Positions 30,519 through 51,760 of a DNA stretch of 64,000 bases are shown here, piece after piece. The notes under the pieces were generated by a model. It made no database searches, had not been told where the DNA came from, and was given only the letters and a program-made list of their open reading frames with translations. How positions within the stretch are numbered: position 1 is the first letter of the stretch; the number at the start of each line of letters is the position of its first letter. A program made the position numbers and the translations under genes. The stretch spans positions 1-64,000 of the forward strand of contig NZ_QOVK01000004.1 of the NCBI RefSeq assembly GCF_004104075.1. The letters run 5' to 3'. Source of the stretch: Leeuwenhoekiella polynyae (GTDB taxonomy: Bacteria; Bacteroidota; Bacteroidia; Flavobacteriales; Flavobacteriaceae).

Positions 30519-30575
30519 TTATTACTGAATATTTGATAAATGTCAATATGACATTTATCAAATATTCAGTAATAA
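30519..30575. repeat. perfect 57-bp palindrome before the first susC gene
   Basis: Two 27-bp arms match without error around a 3-base centre (left arm 30519-30545, right arm 30549-30575). The edge lies 15 bases before the SusC start codon on the minus strand, so the element would be in the 5' untranslated region or promoter. It contains operator site 1 at its core. Confidence 0.9.
30536..30558. promoter_or_regulatory. putative operator ATAAATGT-N7-ACATTTAT, site 1 (first susC)
   Basis: A perfect 8-bp dyad with a 7-base spacer CAATATG lies at the core of the palindrome, 33 bases upstream of the SusC start codon. The same arms and spacing occur at sites 2 and 3. Confidence 0.55.
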
Positions 30576-30798
30576 TTTATATAGACATGGTGGGTAAATT
30601 GATTTTTAAGAGGGGGTAAATCAGTCAATATTAATTAATTCGCTTAATATTAAATCTTTAAGTGCTTACTTGCATATCGAATATTTGTCAATATGTTTGT
30701 TGAATTGATACTTATTTAACTCAAAATCTTGTTTAGATCATTGGTTAAGTTTTTTTTACAAGTATAATTGGGTTAAATTGAATCGGTATTTATTAAAA

Positions 30799-30821
30799 AT
30801 AAATGTAAATAGAACATTTAT
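30799..30821. promoter_or_regulatory. putative operator ATAAATGT-N7-ACATTTAT, site 2 (double GH43)
   Basis: Arms are identical to site 1, with spacer AAATAGA. The dyad extends to 13 bp per arm (30794-30806 and 30814-30826). It is 105 bases upstream of the GH43 start codon; its centre is 263 bp from the centre of site 1, very close to 25 helical turns. Confidence 0.55.
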
Positions 30822-30926
30822 TTTTATTTTATTTGTAGATATAATATTCACAATTCTGAACTAGTATCTTTTAGTTTGAATATTAAGAATATTCCTTTAA
30901 TGAATTATTTATAAAGCATCATTCAA

Positions 30927-33092
30927 ATGTTAAAATCTAAATTGGTTTTTGTTTTCGCTGTAGTATTTTCAACTTTTTTTTCTTCCTGTGTTACGACAGA
31001 AAAAGAAGATGACTTCTCTGCATATCTTTTTGTGTATTTCACAGGTAATGGTCCTGGGGAAGAAGCTGTTCATTATGCCCTTAGTAAAAATGGATATGAC
31101 TATTATGCACTAAATAATGATAAGCCTATTGTATCTACAGATAGTATAAGTACCACAGGTGGCGTGAGAGATCCTCATATTTTAAGAGGAGAAGATGGTA
31201 ATTTTTATATGGTGCTTACTGACCTAAAGACAAACGAAGGATGGAATAATACCGGAATTATTTTAGCAAAATCATCTGACTTGATAAATTGGGAAACCAG
31301 CAGAATAGATCTTGCCAAAAAGTTTTCTGAATTTAGTGATATTACTCGGGCTTGGGCTCCTCAAACTATATATGATGCAGAGGCTGGTAAGTATATGATC
31401 TATTTCTCAATGTTGCAGCCCGGTGGTTATGATAAAGTATATTATACGTATGCAAATGAAGATTTTACAGGTTTAGAAACTGTTCCTGAACACTTATTTT
31501 ACAGTCCGGATGAGAAGTCTTGTATTGACGCAGATATCATCAAAAAGGGAAATAAATTTTATATGTTCTATAAAACCGAAGGCACAGCTACTAAGGGGAT
31601 TCGGGTTGCGGTTTCTGATAGTTTGACGTCTGGTTATGTACCTGAAGAAGGGTACAAAGACCAAACAGATAGAGCGGTTGAAGGTTCGTCTGTGTTTAAA
31701 ATGATCGACAGCGATACGTATATTTTACTATATGATATGTATATCGACGGTAAATATCAATTTGCAGAAAGTACAGACTTATTAAACTTTAAAGCTTTAG
31801 GTGCTGATAAGATCTCGATGAATTTTCACCCGCGTCATGGAACGATAATTCCTGTTACAGAAGCAGAAGCTACTTCGTTGTTAAAGGAATTTCCTTCTGT
31901 AGATTTGCCGTTGATTGTTGGAGCTAATGGAGCTGCCATTCGTAAACAAAATATAGTAGTAAACCCAGAAGAAGCATCGGTTTATTTACCGGTTTATACA
32001 GATAGTAGTTTGACAGATTTAGCTCCGGAGTTAGTTGCTTTTCCTGGGGTTTCAATTGTAGAAAATGGAGCTAAAGACTTTTCAACAGGCGCTAATTCTT
32101 ACACGCTTAGCTTACCAGACGGATCTCAGAAAATATATAGTGTAGCAGCAGCCGTTGCTAATAATCCGGTTTTAGATGGTTTCTATGCAGACCCTGAGAT
32201 TATTTATTCTTATAAAGATGAAAAATTCTATTTATACCCTACGAGTGATGGTTTTGATGGCTGGAGTGGAACCTATTTTAAAACTTTTTCTTCTAAAGAT
32301 TTAGTTCACTGGAAAGATGAAGGTGTTATTGTAGATCTTCTTAAAGATGTCTCTTGGGCTAATAGAAATGCCTGGGCACCATGTATTGCAGAAAAGGAAA
32401 TAGATGGAGCATATAAATACTTCTATTACTTTTCTGCAGCACAAAATATAGGTTTAGCAACCGCAGATAATCCTGCCGGCCCTTTTATAGACATGGGTAA
32501 AGCTTTCGTAGGGGAGAAGCCTGATGCAGTAAAGCGTAGAGGAGGTCAGATTATAGACCCTGATGTTTTTATTGATCCGCAGAGCGGAAAGGGATATTTT
32601 TATTGGGGTAATGGTTATATGGCAGGCGCAGAGCTTGATGAAAATATGATGTCTTATAAAGAGGAAACTTTAAAGGAGCTTACACCAGATGGAACGTATA
32701 GAGAAGGGACTGAAGTGTTTTTTAGAAAGGGAAAATATTACTTTTTATGGTCTGAAGATGACACAAGAAGTCCTAATTATCGCGTACGTTATGCTACCGC
32801 TGAAACACCATTAGGTCCCCTAACTATTCCAGAAGAGAATATGGTGATTCAAAAAGATGAAGAGGCAGAAATCTACGGTACGGGTCATAATTCGGTAATT
32901 AATGTGCCGGGTACAGACGATTGGTATATCGTTTACCACCGTTTTACACGTCCTAAAGGAATTAGTATGGGAGGTCCTGCAGGTTTTCATAGAGAAGTAT
33001 GTATAGATAAACTTACGTTTGCAGAAGACGGTAGTATATTAGAAGTAACTCCTACAGTAGCTGGTATAGCACCAATTACGATTTCTGAATAA
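30927..33092 (+). CDS. two-domain glycoside hydrolase family 43 lipoprotein
   Basis: This 721-residue lipoprotein has the lipobox FSSC near residue 21. The first GH43-like five-bladed propeller is at residues ~25-320, with a candidate base Asp in TTGGVRDPHIL, Asp pKa-modulator in CIDADIIKKG and acid Glu in VEGSSVFKM. A linker (~330-410) follows, then a second GH43 domain (~412-721) with candidate base in LDGFYADPEI, Asp in IDPDVFIDP and acid Glu in REGTEVFFRKGKYYF. Both domains appear to keep the three acidic residues, so both may be active; typical substrates are arabinosides, xylosides or galactosides. It is divergent from susC and carries operator site 2 upstream. A strong terminator at 33138 ends it. 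Confidence 0.9.
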   Translation: MLKSKLVFVFAVVFSTFFSSCVTTEKEDDFSAYLFVYFTGNGPGEEAVHYALSKNGYDYYALNNDKPIVSTDSISTTGGVRDPHILRGEDGNFYMVLTDLKTNEGWNNTGIILAKSSDLINWETSRIDLAKKFSEFSDITRAWAPQTIYDAEAGKYMIYFSMLQPGGYDKVYYTYANEDFTGLETVPEHLFYSPDEKSCIDADIIKKGNKFYMFYKTEGTATKGIRVAVSDSLTSGYVPEEGYKDQTDRAVEGSSVFKMIDSDTYILLYDMYIDGKYQFAESTDLLNFKALGADKISMNFHPRHGTIIPVTEAEATSLLKEFPSVDLPLIVGANGAAIRKQNIVVNPEEASVYLPVYTDSSLTDLAPELVAFPGVSIVENGAKDFSTGANSYTLSLPDGSQKIYSVAAAVANNPVLDGFYADPEIIYSYKDEKFYLYPTSDGFDGWSGTYFKTFSSKDLVHWKDEGVIVDLLKDVSWANRNAWAPCIAEKEIDGAYKYFYYFSAAQNIGLATADNPAGPFIDMGKAFVGEKPDAVKRRGGQIIDPDVFIDPQSGKGYFYWGNGYMAGAELDENMMSYKEETLKELTPDGTYREGTEVFFRKGKYYFLWSEDDTRSPNYRVRYATAETPLGPLTIPEENMVIQKDEEAEIYGTGHNSVINVPGTDDWYIVYHRFTRPKGISMGGPAGFHREVCIDKLTFAEDGSILEVTPTVAGIAPITISE

Positions 33093-33095
33093 TAT

Positions 33096-33110
33096 TTAAC
33101 GACAGTATCT
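33096..33110. repeat. left flanking imperfect direct repeat of the scar region
   Basis: TTAACGACAGTATCT here matches TTAACAACAGTATCC at 35332-35346 in 13 of 15 positions. The two copies lie at the outer edges of the gene-poor region, so they could be old att or target-site duplications. Confidence 0.35.
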
Positions 33111-33137
33111 AAGATTTTGTGGAAACAGAATTTCAGC

Positions 33138-33171
33138 GGGTTTGGCTTTTTATAGCTGAACCCTTTTTTTT
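33138..33171 (+). terminator. rho-independent terminator of the double GH43 gene
   Basis: The stem GGGTTTGGCT / AGCTGAACCC (two G-U pairs) with a short loop is followed by eight T residues, 45 bases after the stop codon. Confidence 0.85.
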
Positions 33172-33249
33172 AAATATAGATAAGAATTGGTTAAATATTA
33201 GCCCCAGTTATGAATTGAGGTCGTCCACTTTTAGTGATCTGCACTAATT

Positions 33250-34513: not shown

Positions 34514-34657
34514 ACTCATTATGCTTTTCTCGGGAGGTATCCTAGAGAATTCCATATACGAAAGCAGCTTGATTATGGAATAAGCTATTCCATGCAAGGA
34601 GATTTTAAATCGATGAGAATTTCAGGTCAAAATCAGAGTAACACAAAATTAAATGCT

Positions 34658-35378: not shown

Positions 35379-38300
35379 TTAACTCGGTTTAAAAGCAGAG
35401 GGCGGTTTACCATACTTTTCTTTAAAAATCTTCCGGAAGTATTTTGCGTCACCAAAACCAACTTCATAGGCAGCTTGCGAGATGGTGAATTTTTCCTTTT
35501 TTATTAAATAAGCTGCGTGCTCAATTTTTATATTTCTTATGTATTCATTGATGTTTTGACCTGTTATTGCTTTGATTTTTCGGTAAAGGGAAGATCTACT
35601 CATACCTATTTTTTCTGAAACAACTTCTACGGTCTTAATACCTTGCTGCATATTATCAAAAACTATTTTGTGGAATTCAGATAAAAATTCTTTTTCTAGA
35701 TCTAATAGCCTTTTTTGATCATTATCCTCTTCAGATAAATTAGATTCTGCAAATCGTTGTAGAAGCTTTACCCGGTTTTCAATAAGATTAGTAACTCTTG
35801 CTTTAAGCACCTGTACATTAAAGGGTTTAAGCATATAATCGTCAGCGCCTTCAGTATAGCCGGTTTCAATCATCTCAAAGTTACTTTTAGCAGATAATAA
35901 AATTATGGGAATGTGTGAAGTTTCCTTTTTATTTTTTATAAAATTACAAAGGTCAATTCCGCTTTTGACGGGCATCATAATGTCGCTTATAATCAGATCT
36001 GGTATATAGTTTATAGCTTTTTCAATACCTTCTTCGCCGTCTTCTGCATGAATGAGGTCATATTCCTGAGCTAACGTACTATCCAGAAATTCTAGAATAT
36101 CTGGGTTATCATCAATGAGTAGGATAAGCTTTCTTTTATTTTCTGGAGAAGCAAGAATGTTTTTAACCTCTCTTTTTTCAACGTTTAAATTATTAGTATT
36201 GATCTGGTGTTCAATTAATTTTTTATCATCTAGTGGGTAATTGTTATCGGTGAGATACTCATCAAGTAAGCTTTCATCTTTAGGAATATATAAAGTAAAG
36301 ACGCTTCCTTTTCCTTCTTTGCTAGTGACTTCTAGCGTTCCTTTATGTAGCTCAGCAAAACGCTTAGAAAGGGCAAGACCAATGCCGCTTCCATCTTTTT
36401 TAAGAGAGGTATTAGACTGATAATACCATTCAAATATATTATTTAGATCTTGGGCCTTAATGCCGCTGCCATTATCGCTAACCTTTAAGATTAACTGTTG
36501 TTCATCTTGCGTAAGTTCAACGTATATTTTTTCACCTTTTGGGCTGTATTTAATAGCATTTGAAACAAGGTTATTGATAATTACTTGAATTTTTTCTAAA
36601 TCACAATAAACACGAAGAGGTGTCTGAGGCATTGTGATAACTAACTCAATACTTTTTTTCTTTAGCAGCGGATCATAACTAGCAAGCCAGTTGGCCAAAT
36701 TCTTAGTTAAGTTGTATTGATTAATGTTCAATTTGCTTAAACCCTTTTCACTTTTTCTAAACTCAAGCAGTTTGTTTATAAACTGTAACAGGTTGTCTGC
36801 ATTGCGTTTTATGAGTTTTAAGCTTTTACGATGTTGTTTGTGTACGGTCTCCTCTAGCAGGGTTTCTAAAGGAGCCAATATTAAAGTTAATGGAGTTTTT
36901 AATTCATGAGAAAAGCCGGTGTAAAATCGAATACGCTCTTCATTTAATTCGTTTTCAAGTTGTCTCTGTTTTTGCTCAAAAACTAAAGAATTTTGAAGCT
37001 TAATACGCTCTGCATAATAATTGAGACTTATCCAAAAGAGGAATATAAATACAACTATATAAAGAATGAATGCTGGTATTGTTTTCCAAATGGGCGGGAG
37101 TATAGTAATTTTTAAATCTTTAAAAATTGCAGGATTACCTTGGTTTTGAGCTTTGATTTTTAAGGTATAATCACCTGGTGTAAGATTGCTGAAATTAATT
37201 CGGGTTGAATTTTTTAAATCAATCCAGTGATTATCATAGCCTTCTAAGGAGTAAGAGTAATTTGTATTAGATGCAAATGGATAATTTAAGTTTGTGAAAT
37301 CTAAAGAGAAATTAGTCTGGTCATGGTTTAACTGAATTTTTTCTGTGAATAAAATAGATTCAGTCAAAAGACTTTTTGGTTCTTCTGGTTTTATAGGAAC
37401 ATCATTATCAAAAAGTTTAAAGTTCTTTATAATAATATTATTTTTAGGAGCACTAACTTTTAATTGTTCGGGTTTAAAAACATTTAAGCCTTTGTTACCA
37501 CCAAAGTATATATGACCAGATTTACTTTTAAATGTAGCCCCTATGTTGTATTCACTCTTTTGAATGTTATTGAAAGAATTTAAACTTTCTACCTCTCCTT
37601 TTTTGTAATTGTATTTAGTGATGCCTTTATATGTGCCTAAGAATATAGTTTCGTAATCATGAACTACGATACTGTTTACAGTATTGTTGCTTAATCCGTT
37701 AGCTTCGGTATAATTTAAAGCAGTTTCATCATCATCATTAAAATGAATAACCCCTCCATATTTTAAACCTGCAACAATACTATCGTCGTTAAGAACTTTG
37801 ATGCAAAAAACTACATTATTAGTTAAGCCTTCTAGGTTTCCATTATAAAATGATTTTACGTCTCCTGTTTTAGGATTAAACCTTATGATTCCATTTCCAT
37901 ACGTAGCCATCCATAATACGCCGTGACTATCTTCATCAATGGCTCTAATATCCATACGACTTGAAATCTTATCTAGGTCACTGCTGTAATTAAATGTATT
38001 CGTGTTATCGTCGTATTTAAACAAACCGCCTCTATTTGTACCTACCCATACATTTCCATTTTTGGCTTGAAATAAGCATCTCACGTCGCTACCGTCTTTA
38101 TTCTCACCTTTGAGGTAATATTGCCAGTTTTTTGTTTTTGTGTTATATCTATTAAGTCCGCCTTGGTAGGTGCCTATCCAGATATTTGCATTAGAATCTT
38201 CAAAAATTGTATTGATATGGTCTGTTGTTAAGCCATTTTTTTTACTCATAACACCATGATTAAAAAGACCGGTTTCTGGGGAATATGTATCAATACCTCC

Positions 38301-39470
38301 GCCATCTGTTGCTAAGTAGACCTTTCCGTTTTGCGATTCAAACATTCCGTTAATACGGTTATGTACTAACTTTTGACCACCCATCAGGTTGTTTTTTATC
38401 AACTTTATAGGCTCTCCAGAAGGATCAACAAAGTTGACTCCTGCGTTAGTACCTATCCACATAAAACCATTTCTATCTTTCTTTAAAGCATTAATAGAGG
38501 CATTGTAAACACTTGTTCCGTTTTCTTTTGGGGTGTATTTTATAACATTAAATTTTTTTTTGTCTTTTGTTATAGCATCTATATCAAATACATTAAGCCC
38601 CCCTTTATAGGTGCCTACCCACAATTTTCCCAAATTGTCTTCTTCTATAGCTAAAATTTGATCATTGCTTAGTCTTTGAGAATTTTTACCTTCTGTTATA
38701 TTTATTTGCTCACCAGAATTTAAGAGGCCTATTAAACCTTGACTTGTACCAATCCATAAATTATTATGGCTATCAACAAAAAGAGTGTTGATTTGAGCGA
38801 CAGTTTCATTATTTATCTTTAGTGGTATATGTGTGATTTTATGGGATTTTAAATCAAATTTATCTAGCCCATTATCAAAAGATCCTACCCACAAAGTCTC
38901 TTTTTGTTTGGTCATGCAAGAGACTTTTACAGAAGCTAATCCATTAGTGTTTTGATCTCCTTGACCATAATAAAGTTTTTCCTCGAAGCCTTCATATATA
39001 AGTAACCCCTGGTTATATGCTCCTACAGCGTAAGTACCATCACCAAGATCTTCATAAGAATTGATGCTTTGTCTTAGGTATGGATTGTAATTGTTGAGTA
39101 AATCAAATTTTTCAATTCTTTGGTTATAAATATTAAGACCACCATCTGTTGCTAAAATGATTTCTCCAGCCTCGTTAAGTGATACATCTTGGATGTAATT
39201 ATTACTCAGCATGGAGTTCTCTCTTCTGTAGATTTTAAAATCTGCTCCATCATATCTGTTAAGTCCGTCAGAAGTTCCTATCCAAATGAAACCTAAAGAA
39301 TCTTGCTCGATAGTTTTTACAATATTGTTAGAAAGTCCTTGCTGTGTATCGAGGCTATAAAATGTAAGTCTGTTACTAAGTGGAAAAGCTTCTTGATCAT
39401 CGTTTTTTTGAGCAAAAAGAAAAGTGTTGACTAAGCCTGTGATTAACAAAAAAAAGTATTTTAAATTCAT
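35379..39470 (-). CDS. hybrid two-component system sensor-regulator (HTCS)
   Basis: This 1363-residue one-protein two-component system has a signal peptide (to ~20), then a periplasmic sensor of about 14 two-bladed Reg_prop propeller repeats (FIWIGTSDGLNRYDG, LWVGTYKGGLNVFD and others, to ~690). A Y_Y_Y domain (SYSLEGYDNHWIDL) and a transmembrane helix (~795-815) follow. The histidine-kinase domain has phospho-acceptor H855 in FSHELKTPLTL and the ATPase motifs NLVSNAIKYSP, DNGSGI and GIGLALSK. The receiver domain has phospho-acceptor D1163 in DLIISDIMMP. A C-terminal AraC-type HTH ends it (VGFGDAKYFRKIFKEKYG). HTCS proteins bind a breakdown oligosaccharide in the periplasm and switch on the PUL beside them. 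This one diverges from the GH43/susCD operon at 39734 and probably controls it. Confidence 0.95.
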   Translation of the reverse strand: MNLKYFFLLITGLVNTFLFAQKNDDQEAFPLSNRLTFYSLDTQQGLSNNIVKTIEQDSLGFIWIGTSDGLNRYDGADFKIYRRENSMLSNNYIQDVSLNEAGEIILATDGGLNIYNQRIEKFDLLNNYNPYLRQSINSYEDLGDGTYAVGAYNQGLLIYEGFEEKLYYGQGDQNTNGLASVKVSCMTKQKETLWVGSFDNGLDKFDLKSHKITHIPLKINNETVAQINTLFVDSHNNLWIGTSQGLIGLLNSGEQINITEGKNSQRLSNDQILAIEEDNLGKLWVGTYKGGLNVFDIDAITKDKKKFNVIKYTPKENGTSVYNASINALKKDRNGFMWIGTNAGVNFVDPSGEPIKLIKNNLMGGQKLVHNRINGMFESQNGKVYLATDGGGIDTYSPETGLFNHGVMSKKNGLTTDHINTIFEDSNANIWIGTYQGGLNRYNTKTKNWQYYLKGENKDGSDVRCLFQAKNGNVWVGTNRGGLFKYDDNTNTFNYSSDLDKISSRMDIRAIDEDSHGVLWMATYGNGIIRFNPKTGDVKSFYNGNLEGLTNNVVFCIKVLNDDSIVAGLKYGGVIHFNDDDETALNYTEANGLSNNTVNSIVVHDYETIFLGTYKGITKYNYKKGEVESLNSFNNIQKSEYNIGATFKSKSGHIYFGGNKGLNVFKPEQLKVSAPKNNIIIKNFKLFDNDVPIKPEEPKSLLTESILFTEKIQLNHDQTNFSLDFTNLNYPFASNTNYSYSLEGYDNHWIDLKNSTRINFSNLTPGDYTLKIKAQNQGNPAIFKDLKITILPPIWKTIPAFILYIVVFIFLFWISLNYYAERIKLQNSLVFEQKQRQLENELNEERIRFYTGFSHELKTPLTLILAPLETLLEETVHKQHRKSLKLIKRNADNLLQFINKLLEFRKSEKGLSKLNINQYNLTKNLANWLASYDPLLKKKSIELVITMPQTPLRVYCDLEKIQVIINNLVSNAIKYSPKGEKIYVELTQDEQQLILKVSDNGSGIKAQDLNNIFEWYYQSNTSLKKDGSGIGLALSKRFAELHKGTLEVTSKEGKGSVFTLYIPKDESLLDEYLTDNNYPLDDKKLIEHQINTNNLNVEKREVKNILASPENKRKLILLIDDNPDILEFLDSTLAQEYDLIHAEDGEEGIEKAINYIPDLIISDIMMPVKSGIDLCNFIKNKKETSHIPIILLSAKSNFEMIETGYTEGADDYMLKPFNVQVLKARVTNLIENRVKLLQRFAESNLSEEDNDQKRLLDLEKEFLSEFHKIVFDNMQQGIKTVEVVSEKIGMSRSSLYRKIKAITGQNINEYIRNIKIEHAAYLIKKEKFTISQAAYEVGFGDAKYFRKIFKEKYGKPPSAFKPS

Positions 39471-41049: not shown

Positions 41050-44000
41050 ATGATTAAAAAATATTTAATGTACCAAAAAGCTGGAATAATTCTTTTGCTT
41101 TGCTTGCTACTCAATTCAATATCCACAGATTTGTATGGAGCAAGTTTATCATCAAAGCCTCCTCAAAAAGTTATTACAGGAACTATATTAGAGGGTGATA
41201 GTAGTACACCACTTCCTGGTGTAACCATTGTAGAAAAGGGAACCAAAAATGGTACAAGTACAGATTTTGATGGAAAATATTCTATATCCGTATCAGCGGG
41301 TGCTACTCTAGTATTTACTTACGTAGGCTTTGTTAGTCAAGAAGTAGTTGTAGGTGATGAGTCTCAGATAGACTTGACCTTAAGTCCTGATATGGATACC
41401 TTAGAAGAAACAGTTGTTATTGGGTTTGGAGGTAAACAGAAAAAGGGTAGTGTTGTTAGCTCTATAACAACAATTAACCCTAAAGAATTAAAGGGACCAA
41501 CAAATAACCTTACAACAATGATGGCGGGGCGTGTATCTGGTATGATTGCTTATCAGAGAACTGGAGAGCCGGGAGCAGATAATTCTGACTTCTTTATACG
41601 TGGACTGGGAACTTTTGGTTCAGGTAAGCGTAACCCCTTAATTTTAATTGACGGAATAGAGTCTACAACAACTGATATGGCTCGTATTCAACCCGATGAT
41701 ATAGATAGTTTTTCGGTATTGAAGGATGCAGCAGCAGCGTCTGTATATGGGGCTCGAGGAGCAAACGGGGTTGTTTTGATCAGTACCAAAAGTGGTAAAG
41801 CAGGAGAAACTCAGTTTAATTTTAGATCTGAAACACGAGTTTCGGCAAACACTACAAACTTCAATTTTGCAGATAATATTACGTATATGAATCTAGCAAA
41901 TGAAGCAGCCCTTACGCGTGACCGTAATGCAATTTTACCTTATTCTCAAACTAAGATAGATAGAACTGCTCAAGGAGACAATCCCTTACTCTATCCTAGT
42001 AATAATTGGATTGATCAACTTGTTAAGGATTATACTGTAAATCAAAGTTTGAACTTAAATGTAAGCGGAGGTAGTGAGAAGGCAAGGTATTATGTTTCTG
42101 GAACCTATAATATAGATAATGGTGTGCTTGATGTTGCTGGGATTAATAACTTCAACAGTAATATAAAGCTTCGTAACTATTCTATAAGAAGTAACATTAA
42201 TCTACAGCTTACTCCTACCACAGAAGCTATTATAAGAGTTTCAGGTCAGTTTGATGATTATAATGGACCTGTAGGAGGTGGTCAGGCAATTTTTAATAGT
42301 GCTGTTTGGTCTAACCCGGTTGCATTTCCTGCAATTTATCCTTCAGAATTACTTCCTTTTATAGAGCATCCTCTTTTTGGAGGAGCACCTACAGGCGTTG
42401 CTTCTGAAACGTTGTTGAATAACCCGTATGCTCAGATGGTAAGGGGGTATCAAACAAGAAAGACTTCTACTATTCGCCCACAATTAGAATTGAAACAAGA
42501 TTTATCTTTTATAACAGAAGGTCTTAGAGTGCGTACAATGGGATATCTGAGTAGATATTCTACATATAATGTTTCTAGACAATATAACCCCTTTTTTTAT
42601 AGCTCATATTTAAACCCTATTGATGGTAATATTGAACTTCAGGTTTTAAATGACGGGAGTGCTAGTTCTATAGGTACTGTAGGGCAAGAATATTTAGGTT
42701 ATGATGAAGGTGATAAATTATTAGATTCTAGGATATATAATGAGACTGCTATCAATTACGACAGAACTTTTGGAGAAAAACACGCTGTTTCTGTAATGTT
42801 ACTTAATTTAATATCCAGTTATGAAAACGGAAACTCTGGTAGTGTACAAAGTTCTTTAGCAAGTAGAAACCATGGTGTATCAGGACGATTTACTTATGCA
42901 TATGATAATCGCTATATGTTTGAAGGAAATTTTGGGTATAATGGTTCTGAGCGTTTTGCAAGAGGTAGTAGGTATGGTTTCTTCCCTTCGGTAGGTTTGG
43001 GGTATCGTATTTCTAATGAGAAATTCTTTGAACCTTTAAAGGATGTTGTATCTAATTTAAAATTTAGAGTTACTTATGGCTTTGTAGGTAATGATCAGAT
43101 AGGTAACACAGAAGATAGATTTTTCTACCTATCTAATGTTAACTTAGACGATGGAAACTATGGTGTAAGTTTTGGACAAGACTTTGGATATTATCGTAAT
43201 GGAGTTTATATCTCAAGATATTCAAATTATGATATTGGTTGGGAAGAATCAGAGCAAGTAAATTTAGGAGTAGATATAGGACTGTTTGGAGATCTTAATA
43301 TCGTAGCAGATATCTTTAGACAGAATAGAACAAATATTCTACAGACTAGATCTAATATAGGTTCTGCTCTGGGTTTAACAGCTACTCCACAAGCAAACTT
43401 TGCTAAGTTAGAGAGTTATGGTCTTGACCTTACTGCAGATTACAACAAGCAGTTGGGAAAATATTTATGGACGCAATTGAGAGCTAATTTTACCTATGCA
43501 GATAATGAGATTTTAGAATATGATGAGGTCGATTACCCGGAGAATTTAGCATACAGGTCGCAGATAGGTCAAAACGCTTCTCAGGTTTATGGGTATATCG
43601 CTGAACGTCTTTTTGTAGATCAGGAAGAGGTAGATAATTCCCCTACGCAGTTTGGAGAATATACAGGTGGAGATATAAAATATCGTGACGTTAATGGAGA
43701 TGGGGTTATCTCACAGAGTGATATGGTGCCAATTGGTAACCCTACTACTCCGAAGATCATTTATGGTTTTGGAGGTACAATAGGTTATAAAGCCTTTGAT
43801 TTGAGTGTGTTCTTTCAAGGATCTGCGGGTTCCAGCTTTTTCATCAACCCACAGAATATTTCTCCTTTTGTTATAAATGGCGGAGCACAAAATGGACTGC
43901 TCAAAGTTGTAGCAGAGGATTACTGGTCAGAGGAGAACCGTGACGTTTACGCATTTTGGCCCCGTTTAAGTCAGACTTTTATAGAGAATAATAACCAGAC

Positions 44001-44238
44001 TTCCACTTGGTGGATGCGTAACGGAGATTTCTTAAGATTAAAAACTTTAGAGGTTGGCTTTAATGCTCCACAAAAATTTCTAGAAAAATTTCATATTAAA
44101 AGTTTACGTCTTTATGCTAGCGGTCTTAACCTGGCTGTGTGGAGCAACTTTGATTTATGGGATCCTGAAATGGGAGGTAACGGTTTAGGATATCCTATTC
44201 AATCGGTATACAACTTAGGCTTACAAGTAAACTTTTAA
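41050..44238 (+). CDS. SusC/RagA-family TonB-dependent outer-membrane transporter (second pair)
   Basis: This 1062-residue protein has a signal peptide, then a CarboxypepD_reg domain (VITGTILEGDSSTPLPGVTIVE, with DFDGKYSISVSAGATLVF), a TonB-box-like stretch TVVIGFGGKQKKGSV and a plug (NNLTTMMAGRVSGMIAY, LILIDGIES, VLKDAAAASVYGARGANGVVLI). A long beta-barrel ends in YNLGLQVNF. It imports the oligosaccharides produced by surface enzymes of this PUL together with the SusD that follows 36 bases later. It shares the N-terminal carboxypeptidase-regulatory and plug architecture with the transporter at 27519-30503 but is clearly a different paralogue. Confidence 0.96.
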   Translation: MIKKYLMYQKAGIILLLCLLLNSISTDLYGASLSSKPPQKVITGTILEGDSSTPLPGVTIVEKGTKNGTSTDFDGKYSISVSAGATLVFTYVGFVSQEVVVGDESQIDLTLSPDMDTLEETVVIGFGGKQKKGSVVSSITTINPKELKGPTNNLTTMMAGRVSGMIAYQRTGEPGADNSDFFIRGLGTFGSGKRNPLILIDGIESTTTDMARIQPDDIDSFSVLKDAAAASVYGARGANGVVLISTKSGKAGETQFNFRSETRVSANTTNFNFADNITYMNLANEAALTRDRNAILPYSQTKIDRTAQGDNPLLYPSNNWIDQLVKDYTVNQSLNLNVSGGSEKARYYVSGTYNIDNGVLDVAGINNFNSNIKLRNYSIRSNINLQLTPTTEAIIRVSGQFDDYNGPVGGGQAIFNSAVWSNPVAFPAIYPSELLPFIEHPLFGGAPTGVASETLLNNPYAQMVRGYQTRKTSTIRPQLELKQDLSFITEGLRVRTMGYLSRYSTYNVSRQYNPFFYSSYLNPIDGNIELQVLNDGSASSIGTVGQEYLGYDEGDKLLDSRIYNETAINYDRTFGEKHAVSVMLLNLISSYENGNSGSVQSSLASRNHGVSGRFTYAYDNRYMFEGNFGYNGSERFARGSRYGFFPSVGLGYRISNEKFFEPLKDVVSNLKFRVTYGFVGNDQIGNTEDRFFYLSNVNLDDGNYGVSFGQDFGYYRNGVYISRYSNYDIGWEESEQVNLGVDIGLFGDLNIVADIFRQNRTNILQTRSNIGSALGLTATPQANFAKLESYGLDLTADYNKQLGKYLWTQLRANFTYADNEILEYDEVDYPENLAYRSQIGQNASQVYGYIAERLFVDQEEVDNSPTQFGEYTGGDIKYRDVNGDGVISQSDMVPIGNPTTPKIIYGFGGTIGYKAFDLSVFFQGSAGSSFFINPQNISPFVINGGAQNGLLKVVAEDYWSEENRDVYAFWPRLSQTFIENNNQTSTWWMRNGDFLRLKTLEVGFNAPQKFLEKFHIKSLRLYASGLNLAVWSNFDLWDPEMGGNGLGYPIQSVYNLGLQVNF

Positions 44239-44274
44239 TTAGCGATGATGATGAAAGAATTTAAAACAGTTAAA

Positions 44275-46230
44275 ATGAAAACATTAACTATGAAAAAATG
44301 TTCACTTTGGAAAAAGCTGGGTGTTGCTATTGCTATTCCAATGATGTTGAATTTACAATCTTGTGAAGACTCATTTTTAGATGTAGTACCAGATAACGTA
44401 GCAACAATTGATCAGGCTTTTAAATTGCGCAACGAGGCAGAAAAATACTTGTTTACTTGTTATGCTTATATGCCTAGAAACGGGAGTCTGATTCACAATC
44501 CGGCAATGTTAGCCGGAGACGAAATGTGGATACCTGATCAGCGACAGGCACTGACTATTTATTCATTAGATATAGCAATGGGTAATCAACGTGTTTCAAA
44601 TCCGTATTTTAATGCATGGGACGGGTATTATGATGGAGGTGGTCCTGGAGATGGATATAACCTCTTTGATGGGATACGACATTGCAATATATTTATTGAA
44701 AATTTGAGTGACGCTAGTAAGGTTCCTGATATTCAGCCTAGTGAGCGGGAGCGTTGGATTGCAGAGGCTAAATTTCTCAAAGCTTATTATCATTTTTATT
44801 TAATGAGAATGTATGGTCCCATACCGGTTATGAGAGAGAATATTCCTGTTGATGCGCCAAGTGAAGTCTTAGATGTTAGTCGTGATAATTGGAATGAGAG
44901 TATCGCATATCTTGTAGAGTTATGTGATGAAGCTATCGCTATTTTACCTCCTTCTATAACTGATATAAATTCAGAACTAGGTAGAATCACAAGACCGATT
45001 GCATTGGGTTTAAAAACACGTATTTTATTAACAGATGCGAGCCCTTTATTTAATGGTAATTCAGATTTGGCCGGTTTGGTAAATAAAGATGGTACGCAAT
45101 TATTTGATACAGATTATGATGCCTCAAAATGGAAATTAGCAGCTGATGCAGCTTTAACAGCTATTGAAGCTTCTGAAAATGCAGGTCATTCACTATATGA
45201 GTTTCCGGGATCAGGTTTTACCTTAACAGATACTACGACCCAAAAGCTAAGCATTCGAAATGCAGTATCAGAACGTTGGAATTCAGAAGTAATCTGGGGA
45301 AATACAGTAAGTCGAACGAGTGAAATACAATTACATGCTATGGCGCCATTAACTATTGAGCATTCTCACAATAATGCACATAAAATAATGTCTCCAACTC
45401 TTAAAATAGCACAACAGTTTTATACTAAAAACGGAGTGCCAATTGATGAAGATACTACGTTAGACTTTAGTGATATTCTTGAGTTGAGAGAGGCCGGTGC
45501 TTCAGAAAAAAACAATATAAGACAGGGTTATACCACTTCTATTTTAAATTATGACCGGGAGCCCAGATTTTATGCAGATTTAGGTTTTGATGGATCTATC
45601 TGGTATAAGTACGATAGCGGTTCTGACGATACTAAATTTCATATAGAGGGTAAATACAATGATTATGCAGGAAGTAATACAGCCTTCTTCTTTAATATGA
45701 CAGGATATTATGTGAAGAAATTAGTGAATTGGAATCAAAGTTTTGGAGAATCATCAGCGTCTTATAGAGATTATGCTTGGCCCGAATTAAGACTTGCCGA
45801 TCTATATCTTATGTATGCCGAAGCTTTAAATGAAGTACAAGGTCCTACCCCTGAAGTTTTTGAATATTTAGATAGAGTTAGAGATCGAGCTGGTCTAGAT
45901 GGAGTACAGGAATCTTGGGCTAACTTTTCTTCAAACCCTAATAAGCCTAATTCTAAAGAAGGATTAAGAGCTATTATTCATCAAGAACGCAATATAGAAA
46001 TGGCCTTTGAGGGGAGTCGTTTTTGGGATATTCGCAGATGGAAAGAGGCTTCTCGAGAGTTTAATGAACCCATACGCGGTTGGAATGTTTTTGGAGAAGA
46101 CGAGGCATCATATTATCAGGTTAGAACTGTTTTTCAACAGCGATTTGTTTCACCTAGAGATTACTTCTGGCCTCTTGCAGAAAATACATTATTACAAAAT
46201 TCAAATTTGGTTCAAAACCTAGGATGGTAA
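44275..46230 (+). CDS. SusD/RagB-family outer-membrane glycan-binding lipoprotein (second pair)
   Basis: I choose the ATG at 44275 (MKTLTMKKCS), which keeps the n-region short. Starts at 44245 or 44290 are also possible. The lipobox LQSC is followed by a mature protein of about 620 residues. SusD features: helices ERWIAEAKFLKAYYHFYLMRMYGPIPV, LRLADLYLMYAEALNEV and LRAIIHQERNIEMAFEGSRFWDIRRWK, and the C-terminal FVSPRDYFWPLAENTLLQN. It is larger than the first SusD (about 545 residues). It is expected to bind the PUL's polysaccharide at the surface and close the SusC transporter. Confidence 0.95.
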   Translation: MKTLTMKKCSLWKKLGVAIAIPMMLNLQSCEDSFLDVVPDNVATIDQAFKLRNEAEKYLFTCYAYMPRNGSLIHNPAMLAGDEMWIPDQRQALTIYSLDIAMGNQRVSNPYFNAWDGYYDGGGPGDGYNLFDGIRHCNIFIENLSDASKVPDIQPSERERWIAEAKFLKAYYHFYLMRMYGPIPVMRENIPVDAPSEVLDVSRDNWNESIAYLVELCDEAIAILPPSITDINSELGRITRPIALGLKTRILLTDASPLFNGNSDLAGLVNKDGTQLFDTDYDASKWKLAADAALTAIEASENAGHSLYEFPGSGFTLTDTTTQKLSIRNAVSERWNSEVIWGNTVSRTSEIQLHAMAPLTIEHSHNNAHKIMSPTLKIAQQFYTKNGVPIDEDTTLDFSDILELREAGASEKNNIRQGYTTSILNYDREPRFYADLGFDGSIWYKYDSGSDDTKFHIEGKYNDYAGSNTAFFFNMTGYYVKKLVNWNQSFGESSASYRDYAWPELRLADLYLMYAEALNEVQGPTPEVFEYLDRVRDRAGLDGVQESWANFSSNPNKPNSKEGLRAIIHQERNIEMAFEGSRFWDIRRWKEASREFNEPIRGWNVFGEDEASYYQVRTVFQQRFVSPRDYFWPLAENTLLQNSNLVQNLGW

Positions 46231-47483: not shown

Positions 47484-49226
47484 ATGAAAACATTTAAAAA
47501 ACAATTTTTTCTCTTGCTGTGTTTTGTGGCTTTAGTCCTTGTTGCAGCTTGTTCAGATGAGATGGAAGATTACAGAAAATTTACTGAAGGCGGTGAAATT
47601 AACTATACAGAAAAAATGGACTCTATAAAAGTATTTACAGGAAGAGAAAGACTGTATTTACAGGGCATAGTTAATGCAGATCCTAAAATTACAAGTTTTA
47701 GAGTGTATTGGAACAGTAAAGCTGATTCTGTAGTAGTACCGGTAACCCGTACTAAACCAGTAGATACCTTAAGTGTATATATAGATGATTTAGAAGAAAA
47801 TATATACAACCTTGAAGTTCGTACCTATGATGATGAGCTAAATAGTTCTATACCAGTAAATATAACAGCAGAAGTATATGGCTCGCGATATCAGAATACA
47901 CTTTATAATAGACCTGTTATAAGTAATGTTTTGATTGGTAATGATTTAACGGTGAGTTATTCGTCAATGGATTTAACCACTGGGGTTTTAGGTACAGAAA
48001 TTCAATATACATCTAGCAATACTTCTGAAATAGAAGAATTTTATGTGCCTATTGATTCAGCTATGGCTTTTATAGAAGATTTTACGAGCGGTTCAGAATA
48101 TCAATATCGAACGATTTTTAAACCGGAACCTACTAGTATAGATACGTTCTATACCGATTATCAAGGCTATATTCCAGAGCCAAAATTGACAGATCCTCCT
48201 TATCTTTTGAACAGCTCTTATCCTTTTGAAATTTTAGAAGGTGGAAGTCGCTGGGGAACTCCAGTAGGTTGGATACACAATGAGGCTGCACTTAGCCATG
48301 GGGGATATGGGGCTTTAGATGGTGAATTATTTGATCTGGAAAGTGGTTGGGGTGAACCTGACCTAATAAATGCAAAAGTTTATCAAACAGTGATTTTACC
48401 TGCAGGTACCTATGCATATTCTATAAATATTGCTGAGACTAATTATGAGGGAGCAGATAATAACTTAGATAAAGCGTACTTCACAGTAGCAAAAGGCCCA
48501 CAATTACCAGATGTATCTGAAGTAGAGACATCTTCTGAAACGCTTGCATATGAACGAGTTAATAAAGCTAACGGACTTAATAGCTTACTCACGTTTACAT
48601 TAGAAGAAACAACACAATTATCTATAGGTGTTCAGACTACAAACGATGGTGGAGCAGGTAGGTATCTTAAGATTAATTCTTTTAAGTTAAATCAATTTTC
48701 TAAAGCACCCTATCTTGAAAATGCAGTTGCACCTTATAAATTGTCTTCAAGTGGAAGTCGATGGGGAACTCCTGAAAATTGGATACATAATGATGCTGCA
48801 ATGAATCATACAGATAATGGGCCTCAAGGTGCATATGATGGGAACTCAGCAAAATGGGATTTAGAAAGTGGTTGGGGACAACCTAATATCGTAAATGGTA
48901 AAGTTTATCAAGTTTTATTTTTAGAACCAGGTACCTACACGTATACTGTGACAATTTTTGCGACAAACTATACTGGTACTCGGGGTACCTCTGATCAAGC
49001 TTATTTTGTTGTTGCAGAGGGGGAAACATTACCTGATGTAGCTGACGTTGAAACAGCTGAAGAAACTCTAGTCTATGATAGGGTTGACTCAGCAAATGAC
49101 AATACAAGAATTTTAAGTTTTACAATTTCAGAACCAACTAAAGTAGCTATAGGCGGAGAAACTACTAATGAAGAGGGGGTAGGTCGTTTTTTACAAGTGG
49201 AGTCATTTAAACTGGTAAAACAATAA
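47484..49226 (+). CDS. DUF4998 surface lipoprotein with duplicated DUF5013-like module
   Basis: I use the ATG at 47484 (MKTFKKQF), which gives a lipobox VAAC; the longer frame overlaps the preceding gene. An N-terminal DUF4998 domain (~20-210) is followed by two copies of a ~165-residue DUF5013-like module (~225-400 and ~405-580). Both copies contain GSRWGTP..WIHN, DLESGWGxPxxxNxKVYQ, LPAGTYxYxxxIxxTNYxG and a GRxLxxxSFKL end. The modules are likely glycan-binding beta-sandwiches. With its neighbour at 46259 it forms the surface-binding set of this PUL. A perfect hairpin (49248-49280) separates it from the GH16 gene. Confidence 0.83.
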   Translation: MKTFKKQFFLLLCFVALVLVAACSDEMEDYRKFTEGGEINYTEKMDSIKVFTGRERLYLQGIVNADPKITSFRVYWNSKADSVVVPVTRTKPVDTLSVYIDDLEENIYNLEVRTYDDELNSSIPVNITAEVYGSRYQNTLYNRPVISNVLIGNDLTVSYSSMDLTTGVLGTEIQYTSSNTSEIEEFYVPIDSAMAFIEDFTSGSEYQYRTIFKPEPTSIDTFYTDYQGYIPEPKLTDPPYLLNSSYPFEILEGGSRWGTPVGWIHNEAALSHGGYGALDGELFDLESGWGEPDLINAKVYQTVILPAGTYAYSINIAETNYEGADNNLDKAYFTVAKGPQLPDVSEVETSSETLAYERVNKANGLNSLLTFTLEETTQLSIGVQTTNDGGAGRYLKINSFKLNQFSKAPYLENAVAPYKLSSSGSRWGTPENWIHNDAAMNHTDNGPQGAYDGNSAKWDLESGWGQPNIVNGKVYQVLFLEPGTYTYTVTIFATNYTGTRGTSDQAYFVVAEGETLPDVADVETAEETLVYDRVDSANDNTRILSFTISEPTKVAIGGETTNEEGVGRFLQVESFKLVKQ

Positions 49227-49247
49227 ACAGGTCATTTTTTTAATTGA

Positions 49248-49280
49248 AAACAGGAAGCAGATTCTAACTGCTTCCTGTTT
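49248..49280. terminator. perfect intra-operon hairpin between the surface-protein and GH16 genes
   Basis: A 13-bp stem AAACAGGAAGCAG / CTGCTTCCTGTTT with a 7-base loop is followed by ATAATAG rather than a T-run. It may partly terminate transcription or protect the 3' end of the susCD mRNA, lowering expression of downstream enzymes. Confidence 0.55.
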
Positions 49281-49301
49281 ATAATAGTATAGCTCTAAAT
49301 C

Positions 49302-50471
49302 ATGAAATCATCTTATATAGAAAAACTTTATTTACTAGGAATACTATTAGTTTTATTTTCATGTTCTGACGAAAATAATAATGATTTGGCATCAATAGAA
49401 AAGCCAGATATTGAGGTAACGAGTCAAGTTCCCACTGTACAGATTGAACAGGTTATAAATATTCTTGAGTCTTCAATGACGATTACAGCATATATAACAG
49501 ATAATGGAGGAGCATCGGTATTAAGCCGTGGAATTTCGGTATCAGTTAAAGAAGAGCTTGCAGAAAGCGATACACAATTTGCTGCAAATACTGTCAAAGC
49601 TTCAGGAGAGTTTACTGCAGATATTTCTGGTCTTAAAGAAAATACAACATATTTTATTAGAGCATACGCTGAAAATAAAGCAGGGATAGCCTATGGAGAT
49701 GTTATAAGTGTAGTAACTAAGGCTGAAATAAAGCCGGTTATAATTGTTGACTCTGAAAGTTTTACATCTCAAGATAAATTTGATGAGACTTGGAATATGC
49801 TGTACCCGTGGGGATCAGATCATAATGGGTCTGCCCGCATGTTTTCTGATAACGTATCTTTAAAAGAAGGGGGTGTTTTAGAAATAATAGCAAAGTGGAC
49901 TAATTGGGAATGGGAGGGGTATAGCACAGCAGATCCTCATTTACGTATCACTTTTCATTCCGGAGCAATACATGCTAAAGATAAGATACGTGTTACAGAA
50001 GAATTACCCTATTGGGAGATAAGTGGGGAATTTATGGCACCAACTGTTCCCAGTTCATGGCCAGCATTTTGGATAAGTGGCTCAGATTCTTGGCCTCCAG
50101 AAGTAGATATTTTAGAATTCAAAGGTACCACATCTAATTTACAAAATACAGTTACTGGTCCGTCTTGGGATAAGACAATATGGACAACTGTTTTAACAGA
50201 TGTTCCTGATGCGGCAACAAGCTGGCACAGTTATAAATTGATTTTGCGTCGTATTGATGAGATAGATACGGCTGTTAATATGTATATAGATGGAGAGTTG
50301 AGATCTAGCGAGATTAAAGATTACACCAATAAACCGTTTTGGCTAATTATTAATATGCAAATGGAAGGAGCTAGCGGAGCAACTAATGATGAGAGTATAG
50401 TACGCTCAGAAGATCAGGTTTTTAGTGCGCGTAATATTAAAGTTGTGGCAACCCCTCAAGCTCAAAATTAA
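49302..50471 (+). CDS. glycoside hydrolase family 16 lipoprotein with N-terminal Fn3-like domain
   Basis: This 389-residue lipoprotein has the lipobox LFSC. An Fn3-like domain (~45-140; VLSRGISVSVK, ASGEFTADISGLKENTTYF) precedes the GH16 beta-jelly-roll. The catalytic motif is E267-x-D269-x-x-E272 (PPEVDILEF), the beta-bulge form, with WPAFWISGSDSWPP before it. GH16 members cleave beta-1,3 or beta-1,4 bonds in laminarin, agar, porphyran, carrageenan or galactan. The gene follows the surface proteins and precedes a zincin-like gene that carries the same N-terminal domain. In this gene set an endo-galactanase is the best guess; the substrate is not proven. Confidence 0.9.
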   Translation: MKSSYIEKLYLLGILLVLFSCSDENNNDLASIEKPDIEVTSQVPTVQIEQVINILESSMTITAYITDNGGASVLSRGISVSVKEELAESDTQFAANTVKASGEFTADISGLKENTTYFIRAYAENKAGIAYGDVISVVTKAEIKPVIIVDSESFTSQDKFDETWNMLYPWGSDHNGSARMFSDNVSLKEGGVLEIIAKWTNWEWEGYSTADPHLRITFHSGAIHAKDKIRVTEELPYWEISGEFMAPTVPSSWPAFWISGSDSWPPEVDILEFKGTTSNLQNTVTGPSWDKTIWTTVLTDVPDAATSWHSYKLILRRIDEIDTAVNMYIDGELRSSEIKDYTNKPFWLIINMQMEGASGATNDESIVRSEDQVFSARNIKVVATPQAQN

Positions 50472-50486
50472 AAAAACACTTAAGTT

Positions 50487-51716
50487 ATGAGATTAAATAT
50501 GAATATAATATATATAAGCAGATTAGCATGTTCAATACTGTTTATTTTCACTTTATTATCCTGTAGTAGTTCTGACAATACAGATGATGTGATTATAGAG
50601 TCAAGTCCTACTCCAGAAGAAAATATTGTACAAGCAGTATTAAGTATTCAAGAGGTATCAAATATAGATACATTCAATGCGATTGTACATGCTGCTGTAA
50701 CTGATGATGGTAATGGCAGTATTTCTGAACGAGGTATTTATTTAAGTACCACTCCTGACTCAAATGAAGGAGACAAATATTTAGCCTCGAGCGTTAAAGG
50801 GTCTGGTGAGTTTACGGTGAGTCTAACGGGTTTAAAACAGGTAACTACATATTATGCTAAACCTTATGCTGTAAATGAAGCAGGTGTAGTTTATGGCGAT
50901 GAGGTTAATTTTAAAACATTAATTGCAGAGTCAGCCTTATTTAATCCGGAAGTGATCTCAATATCTGGTGCTCACGATATTTTTGTAGAAGTAGAACTTA
51001 TAGATCGTGGAGATTTACCCATTACAGAAATGGGAGTCGTGTGGGGAATTGAAGAAGTACCAACAATAGACAACAATAAAATAATTCACGCTACTATAGA
51101 AGATCATTTTAAACTACGTATAACAGATCTTGAAGAGCAGTCGGTATATTTTATTCGTCCTTATAAGATATCTGATGGTGAGGCAGTTTACGGAAGACAG
51201 ATGATTATTTCTACCATTCCAGAGGGTAATTTTACTTGGTCGTTTAATGGTACCTTAGATTTGAACAATCCTATTCACGCCCGTATAAAGAGTGCTTTCG
51301 ATGAGGCGACCTGGTACTTTAATAACTTCACTTCAATAAATAAGCATGTCACGGTTAATTATTCACCAGGCACTCCAACAGCTAATGCTAATTTTGACGG
51401 GTGGATTAATATGGGGCCAGTTGAAAGTTACCAAAGAACAGGTACAGCATTACATGAAATGGCTCATTCAGTTGGTGTAGGAACACATTGGAAGTATGAT
51501 GATTTATTTACAGATAATCGTTATAATGGAGAAAGAGCTGCAGAAATCATACAATTGATGAGCGGTGATGATGAGGAATATATTAGAAAATCAGGTGTTC
51601 ATTTTTGGCCATATGGTATTAACGGAGCTCATGAAGATACGGGTGAAGAAGACTTATACATTACCCACTGTTTAATCTTACAGGGAATGAAAACTGATGG
51701 GCTACCTTCAAATTAA
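50487..51716 (+). CDS. secreted zincin-like metalloprotein (HExxH)
   Basis: This 409-residue lipoprotein has the lipobox LLSC near residue 26. Two Fn3-like domains are visible (~45-140 and ~145-250). The first closely resembles the N-terminal domain of the GH16 protein before it (GSGEFTVSLTGLKQVTTYY). The C-terminal ~160 residues carry H323-E324-M-A-H327-S-V-G-V-G-T-H334. The arrangement HExxHxxGxxxH is one residue longer than the metzincin HExxHxxGxxH, so the third ligand may be H334 or another residue. A cleavage role in a PUL would be on glycoprotein cores, such as the protein part of arabinogalactan proteins, but a purely structural zinc protein is possible. Confidence 0.8.
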   Translation: MRLNMNIIYISRLACSILFIFTLLSCSSSDNTDDVIIESSPTPEENIVQAVLSIQEVSNIDTFNAIVHAAVTDDGNGSISERGIYLSTTPDSNEGDKYLASSVKGSGEFTVSLTGLKQVTTYYAKPYAVNEAGVVYGDEVNFKTLIAESALFNPEVISISGAHDIFVEVELIDRGDLPITEMGVVWGIEEVPTIDNNKIIHATIEDHFKLRITDLEEQSVYFIRPYKISDGEAVYGRQMIISTIPEGNFTWSFNGTLDLNNPIHARIKSAFDEATWYFNNFTSINKHVTVNYSPGTPTANANFDGWINMGPVESYQRTGTALHEMAHSVGVGTHWKYDDLFTDNRYNGERAAEIIQLMSGDDEEYIRKSGVHFWPYGINGAHEDTGEEDLYITHCLILQGMKTDGLPSN

Positions 51717-51737
51717 TAAATTCAAAAGCTGTTAGTT

Positions 51738-51760
51738 ATAAATGTTATTTGTACATTTAT
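51738..51760. promoter_or_regulatory. putative operator ATAAATGT-N7-ACATTTAT, site 3 (BNR_4 gene)
   Basis: The 8-bp arms equal sites 1 and 2, with spacer TATTTGT and two further matching bases on each side (TT/AA). It lies between the zincin gene stop (51716) and the BNR_4 start (51772), 11 bases before that ATG. It may start a second transcription unit inside the PUL. Confidence 0.55.

What the first reader, a model, noticed from the sequence alone, without database searches (positions are those of the whole stretch)
30536..51760. Three perfect copies of one dyad, ATAAATGT-N7-ACATTTAT, link two SusCD loci
Sites at 30536-30558 (before the first susC), 30799-30821 (before the divergent double GH43) and 51738-51760 (11 bases before the BNR_4 gene, deep in the second PUL) have identical 8-bp arms and identical 7-base spacing; only the spacer differs. 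All lie between genes, directly before PUL genes. This suggests one regulator controls the first susCD pair, the GH43 and the distal enzyme operon from 51772 on. No matching site was seen before the second susC. Sites 1 and 2 are 263 bp apart, close to 25 helical turns, which would allow looping. The regulator is unknown: the HTCS is one candidate, an unlinked GntR- or LacI-type repressor another.
Basis: partly seen in the sequence, partly recalled or inferred. Interest (0 to 1): 0.78.

Follow-up and report, generated by a model that had tools for sequence, protein, structure and literature searches.

The report
Operators of an unlinked galactose-type regulator
Three identical DNA palindromes in front of sugar-digestion genes of a marine bacterium look like docking sites for a galactose-sensing relative of a known arabinose repressor encoded elsewhere in the genome, which would explain how the cell ties breakdown of a polysaccharide to use of one of its sugars.

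Summary
The three perfect ATAAATGT-N7-ACATTTAT dyads are real. The whole 4.79 Mb genome holds only four, none with one mismatch, against 0.007-0.016 expected; the fourth also precedes a PUL-type gene. Sites in front of the double GH43 and of BNR_4 (a GH145/PL42-type enzyme of arabinogalactan breakdown) occur in 9 of 9 genus genomes carrying the PUL, mostly with changed spacers and flanks. None lies before the second susC. They are operators.

The regulator is most likely neither the HTCS nor a GntR/LacI protein. It is an unlinked NUDIX + winged-helix protein of the NrtR family (contig C14), a sister branch of the arabinose repressor AraR. AraR's published operator has the same geometry, AAGTGT-N7-ACACTT. 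The residue contacting the G that is A here (K179) is lost in this branch; the contacts to TGT remain. In other Flavobacteriaceae, members often lie beside galactokinase with this dyad, letter for letter in 9 loci. In the one genus genome with this as its only NrtR-type gene, the two intergenic sites precede galKT and a galE operon. The pocket change F36 to V/I/L would admit D-galactose.

Inferred, not shown: galactose as effector, repression, and exclusion of AraR at these sites. Looping is not supported.

The parts
30536..30558 (.). Operator 1, ATAAATGT-CAATATG-ACATTTAT, before susC1
   Evidence: 0 mismatches; site starting 55-62 bp before susC1 in 4 of 5 close orthologues
30514..30580 (.). 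Longer palindrome around operator 1 (32-nt arms, 94%, 3-nt loop)
   Evidence: also in the close relative G006, not in G003; meaning unknown
30799..30821 (.). Operator 2, ATAAATGT-AAATAGA-ACATTTAT, before the double GH43
   Evidence: 0 mismatches; a site before this gene in 9 of 9 genomes with the PUL, six perfect, three with TAAAATGT in one arm
51738..51760 (.). Operator 3, ATAAATGT-TATTTGT-ACATTTAT, 11 bases before BNR_4
   Evidence: 0 mismatches; site starting at -31 to -34 of the start codon in 9 of 9 genomes, seven perfect, ACGT variants in two
27519..30503 (-). susC1 (TonB-dependent receptor), predicted target
   Evidence: Pfam
25853..27532 (-). susD1, predicted target in operon with susC1
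   Evidence: Pfam
30927..33092 (+). Double GH43 protein, predicted target
   Evidence: Pfam; residues 411-710 match PDB 3qz4, E 8.6e-111
51772..53103 (+). BNR_4 protein of the GH145/PL42 kind, first gene of the predicted target operon
   Evidence: Pfam; PDB 4irt, 5muk, 5mum, 5mvh at E 8.4e-133 or better, which PMC8406133 calls GH145 enzymes (passages)
53134..63735 (+). Downstream genes: GH2, GH97, FG-GAP/ASPIC, GH16, DUF2264
   Evidence: Pfam; co-directional; operon inferred from spacing
35379..39470 (-). HTCS, considered as binder and judged unlikely
   Evidence: Pfam; orthologues in 9 of 13 genus genomes
41050..46230 (+). susC2-susD2, no operator in front
   Evidence: Pfam; 0 of 7 orthologues with a site

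Best explanation
The dyads are operators of an unlinked NUDIX/NrtR-family transcription factor, a galactose-type sister branch of AraR. In this genome it is the 241-aa protein at contig C14:97802-98527. A dimer puts one recognition helix into each ATGT half-site, 7 bp apart, and probably represses susC1D1, the double GH43, the BNR_4-GH2-GH97-GH16 operon and the C11 GH43 genes, along with galKT and its own gene. Rising free galactose inside the cell would turn the DNA-binding domains out of register and release the genes. The HTCS probably controls the rest, including susC2D2 (not tested). SHOWN by computation: the sites, their rarity, their conservation, the shared motif class at galKT and at the regulator's own gene, and the matching shift between one DNA-contact residue and the operator base. 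INFERRED: that this protein binds these three sites, that it represses, that galactose is the ligand.
For: Geometry: AraR's tested oligos hold, as I parse them, AAGTGT-N7-ACAC and AAGTGT-N7-ACACTT (PMC4666351); these dyads are AAATGT-N7-ACATTT. Contact logic: in the AraR-DNA crystal K179 contacts the G that is A here; the C14 protein has P at 179 and keeps R180, N181, K184, K204, R205. Covariation in 80 loci: 53 proteins without K/R at 179 hold 25 WWAAAYGT-N7-ACRTTTWW sites in 24 loci (1.015 Mb; reversed control 0); 27 with K/R hold 0 (0.506 Mb). galK/galT lies in the stretch held (up to 10 kb each side) in 33 of 53 against 2 of 27; ara genes in 1 of 53 against 6 of 27. Perfect ATAAATGT-N7-ACATTTAT stands between galK and this gene in 9 loci (six Aquimarina, one each of Cellulophaga, Flavicella, Christiangramia), and after it before galKT in G091. 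Own genome: 13 consensus sites against 1 in the control, among them galKT and the regulator's own gene at -34. G009 has only this NrtR-type gene; of its three consensus sites one lies between SSF and galKT, one before a HAD gene followed by galE, and the third inside an lpxC-like gene. The BNR_4 site carries ACGT in G001 and G011, the form at galKT and at the regulator. L188 has one stretch with BNR_4, this regulator and a susC with one consensus site and one with 1 mismatch. Pocket: R34, R86, H131 kept; F36 is V, I or L in 35 of 35 gal-linked rows and F (6) or Y (1) in 7 ara-linked rows, where AraR lines C4 and C5 of arabinose; galactose differs from L-arabinose there by a CH2OH (recalled).
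Against: No binding or expression data. AraR is present in all 9 genomes that have the PUL, and its genus sites often have one ATGT arm, so AraR could bind too. A consensus site also stands before araB, and others before kduI and an SDR-uxuA pair, kept in G003, so the regulon is wider than galactose or the motif is shared. 29 of 53 loci of the branch have no perfect consensus site in the stretch held, and 20 of 53 no galK/galT. L181 is gal-linked with K179 and a GTGT site; L192 is gal-linked with R179. V36 is not exclusive: 11 Chitinophagaceae rows with K179 and neither gene cluster have it. The Fisher tests ignore relatedness. G010 lacks the susC1-proximal site.
Confidence: 0.76

Rival explanations
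1. The sites are bound by the genome's AraR orthologue (contig C8, beside araB/araD-like, GH51, GH43 and GH127 genes) and respond to L-arabinose.
For: Same spacing; genus AraR sites are AAGTGT-N7-ACATTT with one ATGT arm; a site without any G stands before araB; AraR is present in all 9 genomes with the PUL; arabinogalactan holds arabinose; PMC4666351 predicts AraR control of GH43, GH2, GH97 and SusCD genes in Bacteroides.
Against: AraR keeps K179, which contacts the G missing here; G009 and G007 lack AraR and AraR-type sites but still have 3 and 4 consensus sites of the present kind (in G009 one of the three is coding, in G007 the places were not seen); the BNR_4 site drifts to ACGT, the form at galKT and the C14 gene.
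Confidence: 0.15
2. The window's HTCS binds the dyads through its AraC-type domain.
For: Gene lies between the two susCD loci; orthologues occur in the same 9 genus genomes as the PUL.
Against: [quoted passage not shown] the second susC, next to the HTCS, has no site in 7 of 7; consensus-class sites lie before gal genes in G009 without this HTCS.
Confidence: 0.05
3. Another family (Crp-like, LacI, GntR) binds the dyads.
For: The Bacteroides Crp-like motif TATGTTnTAnAACATA (PMC3878776) has similar arms; no binding data exclude it, and such genes were not scanned.
Against: That motif has 6 bp between GT and AC, not 7; no pair of these arms at any other spacing from 0 to 29 in the window; the repeated neighbourhood with NrtR-type genes points elsewhere.
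Confidence: 0.03
4. The dyads are RNA hairpins or repeats without a regulator.
For: Site 1 is part of a long palindrome.
Against: Arms kept while spacers and flanks change, in front of starts of the same genes; A+T-rich arms; reversed control 0 of 149 genomes.
Confidence: 0.01

Closest known systems
AraR of Bacteroides thetaiotaomicron (BT0354; PDB 5bs6, 5dd4, 5ddg, 5deq), NrtR family
   Same: NUDIX + NrtR winged helix; operator of two short arms 7 bp apart; contacts R180, N181, K184, K204, R205; sugar contacts R34, R86, H131; in print, predicted joint control of PULs with HTCS
   Different: K179 lost and operator G replaced by A; pocket F36, G48, F129 changed; gene neighbours of the branch galKT, not ara genes; effector unknown
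XylR of B. thetaiotaomicron (BT0791), NrtR family
   Same: Same family; a likely orthologue beside xylA/xylB-like genes exists in this genome (C1)
   Different: Recognition helix DKPNFRRK; no dyad of this kind at 2 or fewer mismatches upstream of the C1 gene
HTCS regulons of Bacteroides (PMC3878776)
   Same: PUL with HTCS and SusCD
   Different: Direct repeats with long spacer instead of an inverted repeat
Bacteroides Crp-like palindrome (PMC3878776)
   Same: A+T-rich palindrome with TATGT/ACATA arms
   Different: 6-bp instead of 7-bp spacer; other flanking bases

Membership tests
NrtR family (NUDIX-related regulators) | NUDIX domain followed by NrtR winged-helix domain | tested here: met
   C14 protein: PF00293 and PF21906 over cut-off
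NrtR family (NUDIX-related regulators) | Binds a palindromic operator as a dimer | not testable with these tools
   Site in front of its own gene at -34 is suggestive only
AraR (arabinose regulator) | Operator with 7-bp spacer between GTGT-type arms | tested here: inconclusive
   Spacer 7 met; G of the arm replaced by A
AraR (arabinose regulator) | DNA-contact residues K179, R180, N181, K184, K204, R205 all conserved | tested here: not met
   5 of 6 kept, K179 is P in the C14 protein
AraR (arabinose regulator) | Gene clustered with arabinose catabolism | tested here: not met
   C14 gene stands beside a histidine kinase and a response regulator; loci without K/R179 are gal-linked in 33 of 53, ara-linked in 1 of 53
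AraR (arabinose regulator) | Arabinose pocket R34, R86, H131 with F36, G48, F129 | tested here: not met
   The three polar residues kept; V36, S48, L129 in the close orthologues L140 and L141 and, read from alignment A1, in the C14 protein
AraR (arabinose regulator) | Responds to L-arabinose | not testable with these tools
   Needs ligand assay
HTCS regulon | Direct-repeat operator with long spacer before susC | tested here: not met
   Inverted repeat; no site before susC2
GntR or LacI operator | Family-typical operator and linked regulator | not tested
   No scan of GntR or LacI genes was made; judged from the AraR match

The most novel reading that the evidence does not exclude
Flavobacteriaceae have a galactose-responsive NUDIX repressor, an undescribed sister of AraR and XylR, that ties galKT/galE to arabinogalactan and other galactan PULs. 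Its DNA and sugar specificity moved together by a few residues (K179 lost with operator G to A; F36 to V/I/L with arabinose to galactose), giving a natural series for re-specification of a NUDIX sugar sensor.
Probability: 0.6. Interest if true: 0.62.

Novelty: new variant of a known kind. Interest (0 to 1): 0.52.

Why it matters
Regulation of marine polysaccharide utilization loci is mostly read off linked HTCS genes (my view of the field, not a call). Here the binding sites point to an unlinked monosaccharide sensor whose regulon joins arabinogalactan enzymes with galactose catabolism, so part of the PUL would be switched by the released sugar and part (susC2D2, without a site) by other means, perhaps the HTCS. 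The branch occurs in many Flavobacteriaceae of the 80 loci kept, and the two members scanned (C14 and G091) reach no NCBIfam cut-off, so such proteins are likely to carry generic names. The paired shift of contact residue and operator base makes a clear, cheap test of specificity.

Tried and rejected
HTCS as binder: judged unlikely on published motif type and on sites in a genome without it. The CRP/FNR-type gene next to the fourth site on C11 was considered as regulator and dropped: it stands beside a cation-transport ATPase and cbb3 oxidase genes. DNA looping between sites 1 and 2: not supported, phase not kept. The 3-mismatch matches: no better than control and set aside. Of the 13 consensus sites in the own genome, C6:189793 lies inside a gene (lpxC by recall) and C39:14564 has no clear target; both are counted in the 13. 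G031 has one perfect site without a clear target gene. Literature: ten searches, listings only, of which some were capped (10 of 252 shown, 25 of 684, 10 of 140); none of the listed papers was seen to describe a galactose-type NrtR regulator in Flavobacteriia. Subscription papers and RegPrecise were not searchable. Five papers were opened, in passages or single sections only. Structure prediction and fold search were not used. Rows dropped: the tree and the residue table lack the C14 protein itself; L140 and L141 (95 and 92% identical) stand for it.
Full report
WHAT IS THERE. Over the whole genome of 4,794,008 bases there are four perfect sites and none with one mismatch; 0.007 to 0.016 would be expected from window composition under three Markov orders. 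The fourth, C11:107423, precedes a 358-aa protein without a Pfam match (a GH43-like look is my reading) followed by a gene with two GH43 stretches. Of 149 genomes searched, own included, 11 hold a perfect site: 9 of 13 in the genus plus G031 and G091; the reversed pattern gives 0 in all 149.

CONSERVATION. Nine of 13 genus genomes hold an HTCS orthologue, and these nine have the PUL genes. A site stands before BNR_4 in 9 of 9, starting at -31 to -34 of the start codon; seven are perfect and two (G001, G011) carry ACGT in place of ATGT in one or both arms. One stands before the double GH43 in 9 of 9, six perfect and three with TAAAATGT in one arm. susC1 has its own site in 4 of the 5 close orthologues among the stretches fetched (in G001 with TTAAATGT arms); G010 lacks it, and the G011 gene is only 40% identical and not counted. 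The second susC has none in 7 of 7. In G003 and G010 no second susCD was seen and the site lies between HTCS and BNR_4. Spacers and flanks differ among most of these genomes (G006 shares those of the window) while the arms stay.

WHAT THE TARGETS DO. The BNR_4 protein matches PDB entries 4irt, 5muk, 5mum and 5mvh at E 8.4e-133 or better; PMC8406133 and PMC8377490 (passages) describe these as GH145, to be renamed PL42, and tie the family to rhamnose-glucuronate caps of arabinogalactan. With GH2, GH97, GH16 and GH43 genes this makes arabinogalactan the likely substrate (inference).

FINDING THE REGULATOR. In G091, of another family in the order, three perfect sites lie between an SSF transporter and a sulfatase, before a susC, and between a NUDIX + NrtR winged-helix gene and galactokinase-galT. 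That pointed to AraR, the NrtR-family arabinose repressor (PMC4666351; passages, sections 11 and 14). Its tested operators have the same 7-bp spacing with AAGTGT arms. The own genome has four NrtR-type matches: C8, beside arabinose genes (AraR); C1, beside xylA/xylB-like genes (XylR-like), with a partial copy of that type at the end of C24; and C14, beside a histidine kinase and a response regulator. The C14 protein has helix DPRNFRKK where AraR has DKRNFRKR: the lysine that touches the operator G is gone, the residues for TGT remain. The operator base at that place is A here. The C14 gene has AAAAACGT-N7-ACGTTTAA at -34, and galKT on C3 has ATAAACGT-N7-ACATTTAA.

TEST IN OTHER GENERA. Without K or R: 53 loci, 25 consensus sites in 24 of them, reversed control 0, galK/galT near in 33, ara genes in 1. 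With K or R: 27 loci, 0 sites, galK/galT in 2, ara genes in 6. Fisher p is 5.5e-6 for loci with sites, 2.5e-6 for galK/galT and 0.005 for ara genes, with relatedness ignored. Exceptions: L181 is gal-linked with K179 and a GTGT site, which fits the contact logic but breaks the link of residue and sugar; L192 is gal-linked with R179; L216 is ara-linked without K179. The tree of 86 rows needs two changes for each label, none of 500 shuffles as low.

G009. This genus member has one NrtR-type gene, 82% identical to the C14 protein. Its three consensus sites: between SSF and galKT; before a HAD gene followed by galE (best NCBIfam match galE, 261 bits against a cut-off of 262.3, the gene being cut by the stretch end); and one inside an lpxC-like gene, as in the own genome. 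So galactose genes carry the motif without AraR or XylR.

EFFECTOR. AraR binds arabinose by R34, R86 and H131, all kept in the rows compared. F36, by C4 and C5 of arabinose, is V (20), I (13) or L (2) in 35 gal-linked rows, and F (6) or Y (1) in 7 ara-linked rows; but 11 Chitinophagaceae rows with K179 and no linked sugar genes also have V. D-galactose is L-arabinose plus CH2OH at C5 (recalled). Galactose is therefore the best guess, untested.

LIMITS. AraR is present in all nine PUL genomes and may share sites; its genus sites are AAGTGT-N7-ACATTT (10 of 13 genomes; none in G009 and G007, which lack AraR, nor in G008, which has one). A G-free site before araB is open between the two. Sites before kduI and an SDR-uxuA pair, kept in G003, suggest a wider regulon, including uronates, or a third regulator. 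Repression is taken from AraR and from the position of operator 3 just before the start codon; promoters were not mapped. Genus: 92 consensus sites in 13 genomes against 15 in the control, so about one in six may be chance.

Noticed in passing
window 30514-30580: Operator 1 lies in a long near-perfect palindrome (32-nt arms, 94%), also in the close relative G006 but not in G003; purpose unknown.
   Followed up: partly
G000 C1:548283 and C1:569341 (L133, L134): Consensus-class sites with a TAAAATGT arm before kduI and before an SDR-uxuA pair, kept before the same genes in G003. Uronate genes may belong to the regulon or to a regulator with a similar motif.
   Followed up: partly
L018:13608 and 13729; L120:9313 and 9436: Two asymmetric sites (AAGTGT-N7-ACATTT type and YTGT-N7-ACATTTAT) about 120 bp apart before AraR in G000 and G011, probably AraR's own operators.
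   Followed up: partly
window 30822-30837: TTTTATTTTATTTGTA directly after operator 2 is kept in G003 and G011; may be part of the promoter, so that the operator would overlap it.
   Followed up: no
G000 C24:54346 (L115): A partial second XylR-like gene at the contig end.
   Followed up: no
G010 C9:5127-9185 and C9:469380-473357: Two HTCS genes, 58 and 57% identical to the window's HTCS, in one genome; only the second was examined and stands by the site-bearing PUL.
   Followed up: no
L188:5902-17976: Flavobacterium sp. MLJ.10 locus with BNR_4, a C14-type regulator and a susC preceded by one consensus site and one with 1 mismatch: the regulator inside a PUL-like stretch.
   Followed up: partly
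L245, L255, L264 (G000 C6:34853, C10:11120, C12:37044): The three AAGTGT-type (AraR-like) sites of the own genome lie by an HTCS-like gene, sugar-hydrolase-like genes and a GH43-like gene (by reading, no family search), none in this window.
   Followed up: partly
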